In this document: one piece after another, positions 28,677-54,844 of the stretch
How the letters are laid out: every line of letters begins with the position of its first letter
Numbering within the stretch: the stretch's first letter is position 1
Source: a virus
DNA: 64,000 nucleotides
IMG/VR virus record: IMGVR_UViG_3300035663_000001
Span: 1-64,000 of that record
Reading direction: 5' to 3' (one strand)
Notes under the pieces: model-generated
Told to the model about the DNA's origin: nothing
The model's database searches: none
Seen by the model: only the letters and a program-made list of their open reading frames with translations
Program-made: the position numbers and the translations under genes

Positions 28677-30566
28677 ATGTCGACACCTCCTTCTGTCATT
28701 CCGGTCAAGAAACAGCAAGAATTTAATCTCAAAGTCTGGTCTCTCATCTCCAAGTGTTTGGAGACTCTTCCACGAGGAGAAGATCCTCCTGGATACATCT
28801 TTGGGGGTGCGGTCCGAGAGCGTCTCTGTTGGTATGGGAGCAAAAAGAGCTATTTCCTTCCCCGAGACATCGATCTCTTTTTCCAGGTAGATCCACGCTC
28901 CAGTGTGGATCATAGTTTCTTGTTCCTTACAGAATTGCAAGGGAAACTCCCGAAGGAGTGGGAGTTTTGGTTAGAGGGGCGTTCTGAGTCGTATGGTGGA
29001 ACCTACGAGACTAATACCTACTGTCTGCGTAATAGGCAGACAGGCGCGCAGATTCCACTAGATGTAGTGATCTCAACCGTTCGTCAACAACCTTGTCTCT
29101 TCCAAGAAGATTTGGATATCAATTGTCTGGCCTATCATCCAGATGATGATTTCTTTCTCTACTCGAAGGTGGTAGAGAAAACCACCACAGTAGAACAACT
29201 GCAGGAGGCCATCCGGCGGAAAGAATTCAAAGTGGTCTCTCCTTTGTCGAAGGAACGTCAAGCCAAAGTGGAGAAGTTGACAGCTAATGGCTGGAAAGAT
29301 GTGACCATGGGCACTCATGTCAGTGAACAGGTTCAGTCTGAATTCAATCATCAGGCCTGGGGATTGGTGACCAGGTGTTTGCAAAACGTCTGTCCCCAAG
29401 TGGGTAATCACCCGATTCGTGGTTATTTATTTGGTGGTGCGGTGCGAGATCGCATTGCGTGGTCATATACAATTGGGGGAGGAACCCGCTTCCTCCCCCA
29501 AGACCTGGATCTCTTTTTCCCTTTCCACCCTCATGCCACCGTCGATTACTCGGTGGCGTTCATCAAACAGATGGAGGCGAATCTTCCATCGGGTTGGAGG
29601 TGTGAAAAAATGAAAGGGTTGGGATACGAAGGTGGGTTTTACACCAACACCTATGTTTTAACTGACACCAAGACGGGTGCCAGTTTACCAATGGATGTGG
29701 TGTTTGGATCCGATCGTGCCCAATATCCTTCCGAGGGTCAGGAAGACCTAGACGTCAATTGTCTGGCCTATCATCCAGATCGACACTGCTTTGTTTTCGC
29801 GGAGCGAGTGAAGTCTTCTATCTCAGACATTCTGGCATCCTGTCGTAAGAAGACTTTCTCTGTCTTGACTAATTTGACGGAGAAGAGACAAGAAAAAGCC
29901 AAGAAGTTGATGGCACGTGGCTGGAAGCAGGTAGATGGACCAGCGATCGAATTCAAGAAAGAAGACGATCATTGGTATCATCACGGTTCAGACCAGGTCG
30001 CTAAACCCGCCACACAGACACATCAGTTTGTCCCCCCGACATCGGGGGATCAGAATCAATCAGCATCGGAATCACAGGAGTTTGTTATGAGCAACAGTTT
30101 CATGGATCATGTCAAGTCGGATCTGTCTCAGGGGACCTTTCGAGTGGCAGCCAAGACCATTCCCAAGACCGCCCGCACGGCTTTGCTGGCTTTCTTGAAG
30201 GCCAAGAAGGCGCCCAAGCATTGGATTGTCACGGCCAAGGAAGTGATGGCCACGGATTATGGGTTGGCCATGATTCAGCAGGGATTGGCCTGGAGTTTCC
30301 GTTACTTTCCGATGATGCGAGAGGATGTCCGTGCGCAAGCTTTGGCCAATGAATGGGCCATTGATTCCATTGCCATGGTGGGCAATGAAGTGGTCAATGA
30401 GGCCATGGCCTTCTTGGCGCCAATTGTGGCGCAAGTGATGGAGTTGCCGATGCCGGAGAAGATTCGGGTGGAGCCGAGAGCGGAATCTCGAGTGGAGCCG
30501 ATGATCAAGGGAGTTCCGGATTTGATGAAGGAAGAGGTGAAAGACGCCAAGCGAGCAGTTGCATAG
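28677..30566 (+). CDS. double nucleotidyltransferase fused to the HREDGPA-associated C-terminal domain
   Basis: 629 residues. Two tandem copies (about residues 10-200 and 215-410) each carry the Pol-beta-fold nucleotidyltransferase pattern: GGAVRER...PRDIDLFF...PLDVV and GGAVRDR...PQDLDLFF...PMDVV. This is the head pattern of CCA-adding and poly(A) polymerases. One decayed repeat (VDGPAIEF) follows, then from about residue 475 the conserved domain TFRVAAKTIPKTARTALLAF. That domain also ends five HREDGPA proteins. The gene lies between the tRNA-like array and a hammerhead ribozyme. RNA 3'-end modification is an attractive inference. Confidence 0.78.
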   Translation: MSTPPSVIPVKKQQEFNLKVWSLISKCLETLPRGEDPPGYIFGGAVRERLCWYGSKKSYFLPRDIDLFFQVDPRSSVDHSFLFLTELQGKLPKEWEFWLEGRSESYGGTYETNTYCLRNRQTGAQIPLDVVISTVRQQPCLFQEDLDINCLAYHPDDDFFLYSKVVEKTTTVEQLQEAIRRKEFKVVSPLSKERQAKVEKLTANGWKDVTMGTHVSEQVQSEFNHQAWGLVTRCLQNVCPQVGNHPIRGYLFGGAVRDRIAWSYTIGGGTRFLPQDLDLFFPFHPHATVDYSVAFIKQMEANLPSGWRCEKMKGLGYEGGFYTNTYVLTDTKTGASLPMDVVFGSDRAQYPSEGQEDLDVNCLAYHPDRHCFVFAERVKSSISDILASCRKKTFSVLTNLTEKRQEKAKKLMARGWKQVDGPAIEFKKEDDHWYHHGSDQVAKPATQTHQFVPPTSGDQNQSASESQEFVMSNSFMDHVKSDLSQGTFRVAAKTIPKTARTALLAFLKAKKAPKHWIVTAKEVMATDYGLAMIQQGLAWSFRYFPMMREDVRAQALANEWAIDSIAMVGNEVVNEAMAFLAPIVAQVMELPMPEKIRVEPRAESRVEPMIKGVPDLMKEEVKDAKRAVA

Positions 30567-30602
30567 TCTGCTCGGTTCGGACTGGTAGGTTACCATATGC
30601 CA

Positions 30603-30678
30603 GGACGAAACTTACCTTCATGGGTTCACCATTCCCCGTGGAGGTAAGTCCAACCGTGAGACGGTTGCTGATGAGTCC
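30603..30678 (+). ncRNA. type II hammerhead ribozyme, copy A
   Basis: Core in order: GGAC (stem II), GAAA, CTTACC...GGTAAG (stem III), GTC cleavage site (after 30650), CAACCG...CGGTTG (stem I), CTGATGA, GTCC (stem II). Every invariant hammerhead residue is present. It begins 36 bases after the stop of the nucleotidyltransferase gene. Confidence 0.88.
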
Positions 30679-30701
30679 AAAGTTTCAGAGGGTCACCAAG
30701 T

Positions 30702-52760: not shown

Positions 52761-53162
52761 ATGATTAATAAGAAAATGCCCATTATGTCCACTACCTTTG
52801 CTGGTGGAAAAATTTGGAAATTAAATGGACTATATCATCGACAAGATGGTCCTGCCATTGAAAGACACAATGGCTCGAAAGAATACTACCTGTTCGGCCA
52901 ACTTCATCGAGAAGATGGTCCAGCCATTATTAACCGTAATGGTGACCAAGAATGGTGGAGTCATAATCAATTACACCGAGATGATGGTCCAGCGGTAGAA
53001 TATGCTGATGGAACTAAGATGTGGTATTTTCACGGTCTTCTCCATCGAGAAGGCGGGCCAGCCATTATCTATCCCAATGGAGTAGAATTATTTTACCTAG
53101 AAGGTAAAGAATTAGAACCTGAAGAATATTCTCAAAAACTTCTAATTAAAAATGAATTTTAA
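52761..53162 (+). CDS. HREDGPA-repeat protein, 4 repeats
   Basis: A 133-residue protein (MINKKMPIMSTTFAGGKIW) with HRQDGPA, HREDGPA, HRDDGPA and HREGGPA. It ends YSQKLLIKNEF, a diverged tail. Confidence 0.8.
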   Translation: MINKKMPIMSTTFAGGKIWKLNGLYHRQDGPAIERHNGSKEYYLFGQLHREDGPAIINRNGDQEWWSHNQLHRDDGPAVEYADGTKMWYFHGLLHREGGPAIIYPNGVELFYLEGKELEPEEYSQKLLIKNEF

Positions 53163-53214
53163 TATCTTATGGGTCACCAAAGATAGTTTATCTGATTTTC
53201 GACTGGAGAATTAA

Positions 53215-53619
53215 ATGAGAATTCTAATTTTAGATGACGACCAATTTCGCCATAATTTTTTCCGAGAATCTTTTATTGCAGACGAAGTAATTAGTGTGCA
53301 TAAATTTTCTGAATTCTTGCATCATTTACACACCGGTTCTCCTTGGGATTTAATTCACTTAGACCATGATTTATGTGATTTGGTGGAAGGTGATACTTTT
53401 GTCGATGATTTTGGTAAACAGCAAGAGTTTAATGGTCAACATGCGGCTTGGCAGATTTGTCAACTAACAGATAATCTGTTACCTAAACAGATTATCATTC
53501 AATCGGTGAATGATGATGGGGCGTTGGCTATGTTAAAAATTATCAAAGCTCGTGGTGTAGAAGTTAAGTGGGAACCTTTTGCAGAATGCCCTCCAGATTT
53601 AGAGGTATTACATGACTAA
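53215..53619 (+). CDS. receiver-like protein, cyclic-phosphate-processing type
   Basis: A 134-residue protein. MRILILDDDQFRH and LIHLDHDLCD match the receiver-fold family that I recall as the cyclic-phosphate processing receiver (cREC). That family differs from response regulators by the LDHDL motif and absence of an output domain. Predicted substrates are 2',3'-cyclic phosphate ends, the product of hammerhead cleavage. It overlaps the next gene by 8 bases. Confidence 0.68.
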   Translation: MRILILDDDQFRHNFFRESFIADEVISVHKFSEFLHHLHTGSPWDLIHLDHDLCDLVEGDTFVDDFGKQQEFNGQHAAWQICQLTDNLLPKQIIIQSVNDDGALAMLKIIKARGVEVKWEPFAECPPDLEVLHD

Positions 53620-54844
53620 CCCTTCTTTTTTAATGTGTGTTGATCTTGATGGAAATAAAAGTTACTATAATCCTGATGAGGATTATCTCCATCGAGAGGA
53701 TGGTCCAGCCATAGAACGGGTTAATGGAAATAAAGAATGGTGGCTTAATGGTCAGCGACATCGAGAAGATGGTCCGGCCATAGAATGGTCTAATGGAAAT
53801 AAACAATGGTATCTTCATGATCAACTACATCGAGAAGATGGTCCAGCAGTAGAGCTGTTTAATGGATATAAAGAATGGCGTCTTCATGACAAATTACATC
53901 GAGAAGATGGCCCAGCACTAGAATATTCTAATGGAGATAAATTCTGGTATCTTCAAGGCGAAAAATATTCATAAACCGAGTGGATGAAAAAAGTGGCTGC
54001 CATGAAAAAGAAAACTGCCGCTCCAACCCATCAACAGATTGATTCTACTCAGCCAGTGATGGAAGTAGATAAAGATGGCAATAAGTTTTGGAAGTTGAAT
54101 GGTCTCTTACATCGAGAAGATGGGCCAGCCGTAGAATATCCTAATGGAAATAAATGCTGGTGTTTTCATGGAAAACTCCATCGAGAAGATGGTCCAGCTA
54201 TAGAATATAATAATGGGGCTAAATGTTGGTGTATTCATGGTAAACTCCATCGAGAAGATGGGCCAGCATTAGAAATGCCTAATGGATATAAAGAATGGCG
54301 GCTTCAAGATAAAATCTACACTGAAACCGAGTGGAAAGAAAAAACAGCTAATATAAATAAGAAATGTGTCTCTCCATCTAATGGAGAGATAAATGTCCTG
54401 CCTTCAGCATGGAATTATTTTACTGCTGATGTAAATCAAGCTGCCTTTAGAGTAGCGGCTAAATCTATTTCTAAAACCGCCAGAGTAATGTTACTTGCTT
54501 TTCTGAAAAACAAGCAAGTAAAAAAGAGCTGGATTAAAACAGCTAAAGAAATTATGGAGACAGAATGGGGTTTAGCTTTTATTCAACAGATTCTAGCTTG
54601 GATTTTTAGATATCTGCCATCATTGCAAAATGAACCTCGAGCTCAAGCATTAGCTAATGAATGGGCTATTGATAGTGTAGCTATCATTGGAAATGAAATG
54701 TTATCAGAAGTAATTTCGTTTTTGAAACCCATTATGTCTCAAGTAATAGAACTTCCTCATCCTTCAATCAGGATTTCTGAATCTTCTAACACAGCAGAAG
54801 AAGAATTACTTGAACTGCCAGCAGTCAAACATCAAACAGTTTGA
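53612..54844 (+). pseudogene. HREDGPA-repeat protein with C-terminal domain, split by an in-frame TAA
   Basis: Residues 1-120 give four repeats ending GEKYS, then TAA at 53972-53974, then the same frame continues TEWMKKVAAMKKK, three more repeats and the whole C-terminal domain. Relatives have Glu at this point (YTETEW), so GAA to TAA explains it. The downstream part has an in-frame ATG at 53984. It is either one nonsense mutation, a read-through site, or two separate proteins. Confidence 0.8.

What the first reader, a model, noticed from the sequence alone, without database searches (positions are those of the whole stretch)
28677..54844. A shared helical C-terminal domain links long HREDGPA proteins to a double nucleotidyltransferase
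A block of about 120 residues (SDLSQGTFRVAAKTIPKTAR ... LANEWAIDSxAxxGNE) ends proteins at 28677, 34502, 38547, 40773, 50474 and 53984. In one, the repeats are replaced by two Pol-beta-type nucleotidyltransferase domains with a single repeat remnant. The same domain survives where repeats are nearly lost (38547). This suggests a docking or effector domain that is the constant partner of variable repeats, with an enzymatic member, i.e. a possible multi-component system.
Basis: partly seen in the sequence, partly recalled or inferred. Interest (0 to 1): 0.85.

Follow-up and report, generated by a model that had tools for sequence, protein, structure and literature searches.

The report
Shared helical tail on phage repeat proteins
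A very large bacterial virus has attached the same small bundle of helices to the end of five proteins built from MORN-like repeats and one twin nucleotidyltransferase, and a relative carries the bundle as a separate gene, so it is probably a reusable docking or assembly piece, though what it docks to is unknown.

Summary
Six proteins end in the same ~115-residue domain (56-77% identity to one copy, dN well below dS), and one carries two intact Pol-beta-type nucleotidyltransferase (NTase) domains instead of repeats. The window is half of a 128.5-kb fragment of a large caudophage. The only other record with all six copies is 100% identical, so it is not independent. The domain is not confined to this genome: a related phage (IMGVR_UViG_3300036715_003821) has a stand-alone 153-aa homologue, and its largest repeat protein ends in a probable distant copy. 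AlphaFold gives a separate helical bundle (pLDDT ~80-90) with no match in Pfam, PHROGs, NCBIfam or PDB. The HREDGPA repeats fold like MORN repeats. 'Constant partner of variable repeats' is only partly right: in this virus 59 of 71 repeat genes end in another short tail (YWRVVKLKALW type), and in other phages the repeats carry other tails or are fused to MazG or DUF3310. Best reading: a phage-specific helical docking or assembly domain, duplicated and fused behind MORN-like solenoids and an RNA-end-type NTase to co-localise them. The anatomy is shown; the mechanism is inferred. Moderate interest: a new variant of modular phage proteins.

The parts
28677..30566 (+). Twin NTase + repeat remnant + C-terminal domain (CTD) protein, 629 aa
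28713..29303 (+). NTase domain 1 (GGAVR 28803, DIDLFF 28866, PLDVV 29055)
   Evidence: Pfam PolyA_pol head sub-threshold E 0.02-0.07
29331..29933 (+). NTase domain 2 (GGAVR 29433, DLDLFF 29502, PMDVV 29688)
   Evidence: phrog_1614 nucleotidyltransferase E 1e-4 whole protein, 0.01 domain alone
29931..29987 (+). single HREDGPA-type repeat remnant
   Evidence: read directly
30114..30467 (+). CTD copy 1 (NTase protein)
34502..35917 (+). 7-repeat protein with CTD (471 aa)
35492..35845 (+). CTD copy 2; its 3' flank is homologous to that of 28677
38547..39410 (+). repeat-poor protein with CTD (287 aa)
38973..39314 (+). CTD copy 3 (89% DNA identity to copy 4 overall, dropping in the last block)
40773..42224 (+). 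8-repeat protein with CTD (483 aa)
41805..42161 (+). CTD copy 4
50474..52759 (+). 15-repeat protein with CTD (761 aa)
52322..52681 (+). CTD copy 5
53612..54844 (+). frame for 7 repeats + CTD, split by one in-frame TAA; the listed ORF 53984-54844 is the 3' part
54422..54778 (+). CTD copy 6 (most diverged within the window)
44014..44994 (+). 6-repeat protein WITHOUT CTD; other helical end (phrog_31392, E 6e-4)
45833..46855 (+). 6-repeat protein WITHOUT CTD; coiled-coil-like end

Best explanation
The shared block is a small (~100-residue core) helical-bundle domain of a phage protein family that also exists as a stand-alone gene. In this large phage it was duplicated and recombined onto the ends of proteins whose front parts are either one to several MORN-like HREDGPA modules or a twin Pol-beta NTase. 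Most likely it is a common docking or self-assembly domain. The bundle binds one shared phage or host site, or itself, across a flexible ~30-residue linker. The MORN-like solenoids present differing faces (a few hypervariable positions per 23-residue repeat) to other partners. The NTase member brings RNA-end repair or nucleotidylation to the same site. Shown: sequence homology, constraint, catalytic motifs, stand-alone homologue. Predicted by model: separate fold, MORN-like repeat fold. Inferred: common target, self-association, NTase substrate, and that the six products act together.
For: Six copies with dN 0.06-0.36 against dS 0.4 to saturated. Colinear stand-alone homologue in a related phage, E 5.9e-12, 27% identity, through the terminal LPxP..RI. 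Probable CTD at the C-end of that phage's large repeat protein: hhalign P 8.9e-4 over 113 columns; best of 150 shuffles 0.062, best unrelated ORF window 0.0063. AlphaFold: repeats pLDDT 90-97, disordered linker 130-160, CTD as a separate five-helix bundle, pLDDT ~79-93 over residues 161-245. Foldseek: repeats match MORN1 crystal structures at probability 1.00, E 1.3e-3. Framework conserved with variable positions 10, 11, 14, 16, 23. Both NTase domains keep their catalytic residues. The virus also carries RNA ligase, Ro60 and tRNA genes.
Against: No direct evidence of binding, oligomerisation or co-expression. CTD copies sit on a small minority of repeat proteins. No fold match in PDB for the CTD. 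The fusions arose in a region rich in direct repeats, where recombination could join genes neutrally. Only two related phage lineages carry the domain in what was searched.
Confidence: 0.42

Rival explanations
1. Virion-packaging or injection tag: the CTD marks unlike cargo (MORN-like adaptors, NTase) for loading into the capsid and delivery with the DNA, as in polyvalent proteins or T4 Alt.
For: One constant domain on several unlike cargoes; Pol-beta NTases occur among polyvalent-protein domains (PMC5512222); the stand-alone copy in the relative follows, 204 bp downstream, a gene of the Rnl1 RNA ligase / tail-fibre attachment catalyst family.
Against: No late or structural gene context was established for the six genes; no known packaging signal or prohead-protease motif was tested for; the genes sit among small accessory and repeat genes.
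Confidence: 0.2
2. No system: gene duplication and recombination between near-identical repeat DNA fused a resident gene (like the stand-alone one) to neighbouring repeat genes and an NTase. The CTD has its own function and the front parts are passengers.
For: Near-identical CTD blocks with abrupt loss of identity at the ends, and homologous 3' flanks of 28677 and 34502; one copy split by a stop; repeat modules fuse to many unrelated partners in other phages.
Against: Repeat-CTD architecture probably recurs in a second phage with only ~23% identity, which suggests it is kept; NTase motifs intact in both domains.
Confidence: 0.23
3. RNA-repair accessory: the CTD binds tRNA or the ribosome and presents it to the NTase; the repeat-CTD proteins are scaffolds for the same task.
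For: NTase domains of the GG-x-VR...DxD (CCA-adding / poly(A) polymerase head) type; RNA ligase, Ro60 and tRNAs in the same record; stand-alone CTD gene near an Rnl1 ligase; jumbo phages deploy NTases to restore RNA ends (PMC7824862).
Against: CTD is not markedly basic (K+R about equal to D+E) and has no RNA-binding family match; five of six copies carry no enzyme.
Confidence: 0.13

Closest known systems
MORN-repeat proteins (MORN1; Pfam MORN_2, DUF6745)
   Same: beta-hairpin solenoid; Foldseek probability 1.00 to MORN1 structures; weak MORN_2 and partial DUF6745 sequence matches
   Different: 23-residue unit with an invariant HR..GPA framework; module closed by a helix; Pfam MORN_2 stays below its cut-off; the helical CTD is not part of any MORN family
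CCA-adding enzyme / poly(A) polymerase head (PF01743) and phrog_1614 nucleotidyltransferase
   Same: GGxVR...DxD plus a third Asp in each of two domains
   Different: two heads in tandem, no neck/body RNA-binding domains found, followed by a CTD; score below the Pfam cut-off
Polyvalent proteins of phages and conjugative elements (PMC5512222)
   Same: modular multi-domain proteins in which shared domains combine with unlike partners, Pol-beta NTases included
   Different: here a single small helical domain is the shared part; delivery with DNA not shown; no ArdC, ParB or similar hallmark domain found
Lineage-specific gene expansions in jumbo phages (e.g. ~35-copy zinc ribbon in Bacillus phage G, PMC7824862)
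   Same: massive paralogue expansion in one large phage
   Different: here a MORN-like module, 71 ORFs and ~280 repeats, spread over much of a 128-kb fragment

Membership tests
MORN repeat | beta-hairpin solenoid fold | tested here: met
   AlphaFold pLDDT 90-97 over repeats; top PDB hits are MORN1; prediction only, no solved structure
MORN repeat | sequence match to Pfam MORN/MORN_2 above cut-off | tested here: not met
   MORN_2 only sub-threshold in some relatives; none in window proteins
CCA-adding / poly(A) polymerase head | GGxVR and DxD catalytic motifs | tested here: met
   both domains
CCA-adding / poly(A) polymerase head | PF01743 above its curated cut-off and C-terminal RNA-binding domains | tested here: not met
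   15.5 bits against cut-off 23; no further domain found
MNT-HEPN pairs | helical partner with R-x4-6-H motif | tested here: not met
   no conserved His in the CTD alignment
Polyvalent proteins | domains of disparate activity combined in one protein family | tested here: inconclusive
   NTase and MORN-like parts share a CTD but are not in one polypeptide, apart from the one repeat remnant
Polyvalent proteins | transferred into the host with the DNA | not testable with these tools
   needs virion proteomics

The most novel reading that the evidence does not exclude
A phage-made modular adaptor set: one helical hub domain gathers MORN-like arms of differing specificity and an RNA-repair or nucleotidylating twin NTase into a single assembly, with dozens of free MORN-like modules as exchangeable partners.
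Probability: 0.15. Interest if true: 0.75.

Novelty: new variant of a known kind. Interest (0 to 1): 0.5.

Why it matters
Very large phages carry hundreds of genes of unknown use. If the domain is a docking piece, pulling on one copy would show where the repeat proteins act, and the repeats would be a naturally varied scaffold in bacteria. No paper in the searched library contains the motif HREDGPA or the name DUF6745, and a jumbo-phage survey does not mention MORN.

Tried and rejected
Chance similarity: rejected. Independent second genome: rejected, G001 is 100% identical to the window. CTD in bacterial genomes: none by two pattern scans. CTD in annotated phages or plasmids: none by tblastn (the plasmid search of the whole 53984 protein, matched the repeat part only). 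The pattern-based scans also missed the proven homologue in G003, so these absences are weak. CTD fold from the six close copies alone was poor (pLDDT 59) and its Foldseek hits meaningless; adding the stand-alone homologue and a repeat alignment gave a usable model, yet still no CTD match. I first took G003 to lack HREDGPA repeats because the DUF6745 profile found none; a direct repeat search showed it has them. A weak hit in the 595-kb phage LR756511.1 (E 0.06, 21 columns) lies in an unrelated, baseplate-like protein and is taken as chance. HEPN identity rejected for lack of the motif. Membrane insertion not supported (best 19-residue hydropathy 1.4). General stop-codon recoding not supported, although a CUA-anticodon tRNA is present: TAG ends 5 of 26 genes.

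Full report
What it is. The window is bases 1-64000 of a 128,541-base IMG/VR virus record. Its genes mark it as a fragment of a large tailed phage: ThyX, IMP dehydrogenase, a Dda/UvrD helicase, class II tRNA synthetase domain, EF-Ts, Ro60, RNA ligase, HNH nucleases and TnpB-type genes. The nearest relatives found by a 425-aa protein are other uncultured phage contigs up to 340 kb, with the 595-kb phage LR756511.1 more distant. The host is unknown.

All six proteins end in one domain, and a search finds these six places and no other in the record. Between copies dN is 0.06-0.36 while dS is 0.4 to saturated, so the domain is under constraint (dS near saturation makes ratios rough). Copies 38547 and 40773 are almost identical until the last block, and genes 28677 and 34502 share homologous 3' flanks, so the set grew by duplication and recombination. 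The 53984 ORF is the 3' part of a longer frame from 53612, interrupted by one in-frame TAA.

Where else it occurs. Record IMGVR_UViG_3300042477_000802 has all six copies but is 100% identical to the window where compared, hence not independent. A profile search of 50 records found one true relative, in IMGVR_UViG_3300036715_003821 (G003): a 153-aa stand-alone protein, E 5.9e-12, colinear over the whole domain. The same contig encodes a 773-residue frame (cut by the contig end) with several HREDGPA repeats whose last ~110 residues align to the domain profile by hhalign at P 8.9e-4. In a control, 150 shuffles reached at best 0.062, and no window from any unrelated ORF of the two phages scored better than 0.0063; two other windows of the same 773-residue frame gave 0.0019 and 0.0026 over short stretches. 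I treat this second G003 copy as probable, not proven. G003 and the window virus are related (57% over a 425-aa protein), so the domain is so far known from one group of phages. Pattern scans of viral and bacterial collections found nothing else, but the same scans missed the proven G003 homologue, so absence is weakly supported.

Structure. With a 30-row alignment AlphaFold models the 53984 protein as three well-defined parts: the repeats (pLDDT 90-97, short paired strands, closed by a helix made of the YTExEWKKKVAAM segment), a disordered linker, and a separate five-helix bundle, pLDDT roughly 79-93 to residue 245, for the shared domain. Foldseek matches the repeats to MORN1 crystal structures (probability 1.00, E 1.3e-3) and to many phage and giant-virus proteins. 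The high-ranking matches are MORN-type or HREDGPA-type proteins, as expected of the repeats; I saw none that the helical domain would explain. The shared domain has no family in Pfam, PHROGs or NCBIfam.

The repeats and their partners. The record has 71 ORFs with two or more repeats and 282 scored repeat units. Each 23-residue unit has a nearly invariant HR..GPA framework, with high variability at positions 10, 11, 14, 16 and 23. By my count, 59 of the 71 end in a short tail of the type YWRVVKLKALW; only four of the 71, plus 38547, carry the shared helical domain. In other phages the same repeats come with other tails, each typical of its lineage, or are fused to MazG (Pfam E 2e-8) and DUF3310 (E 8e-21; one DUF3310 fusion seen in two metagenomes with different repeat numbers). 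So a fixed C-terminal end behind variable repeats is a recurring theme, but the end differs by lineage, and even within this virus the helical domain is a minority partner.

The enzyme. The 28677 protein has two NTase domains, 41% identical, each with GGAVR, DxDLFF and a third Asp. They resemble the head of CCA-adding and poly(A) polymerases but score below Pfam's cut-off, and weakly match phrog_1614. The same record holds RNA ligase, Ro60 and tRNAs. Jumbo phages are reported to use NTases to restore damaged RNA ends (PMC7824862). RNA-end repair is therefore the likeliest substrate class, by inference.

Mechanism. The best-supported reading is a helical docking or assembly domain that brings MORN-like binding arms and an NTase to one place. 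Purifying selection and occurrence both alone and in fusion are shown; separate folding and a flexible linker are predicted; target, oligomer state and joint action are not shown. Rivals are a virion-delivery tag, a recombination by-product, and an RNA-binding accessory. None is excluded.

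Noticed in passing
window 22094-28321; also 47204, 54883, 61564: A ~20-bp intergenic repeat TCCCAGCGACTAA(A/G)TTTTKTC, usually followed by CCTA, occurs about 21 times, mostly in the high-GC part; it looks like a regulatory or processing signal.
   Followed up: partly
window ~27840-28320: Three tRNA-like elements (GACTCAATGACAG... and GTAGGTTCGATTCCTACCTGAGTC) with inserts, not called by ARAGORN or Rfam; possibly interrupted or decayed tRNAs.
   Followed up: no
window 55943-56018: tRNA gene with a CUA anticodon, labelled Pyl by ARAGORN, in a phage that still uses TAG as a stop in 5 of 26 genes checked.
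   Followed up: partly
L084 2394-3053: A repeat gene inside a tandem array starts with what looks like the N-terminus of ribonucleotide reductase small chain (Pfam only E 0.04).
   Followed up: partly
L026 5301-7191; L028 9737-10294; L034 2124-2819: HREDGPA repeats fused to MazG and to DUF3310, the latter at either end.
   Followed up: yes
BFVD hits: The same MORN-like repeat fold, with up to 45% identity, occurs in giant viruses of protists (Harvfovirus, Hyperionvirus, mimivirus R871).
   Followed up: no
window 1-64000: GC content shifts from 30-46% to 54% near 22 kb and declines again towards 36%, with a strong negative GC skew at 18-22 kb.
   Followed up: no
window 5343-7088: 581-aa reading frame longer than an ordinary ThyX; an intein-splicing hit occurs in the same protein set, so it may be an intein-bearing ThyX.
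   Followed up: no
window 27385-27819 and 47410-47829: Two similar small proteins (MSSFSI...) lie within and just before the CTD gene region.
   Followed up: no
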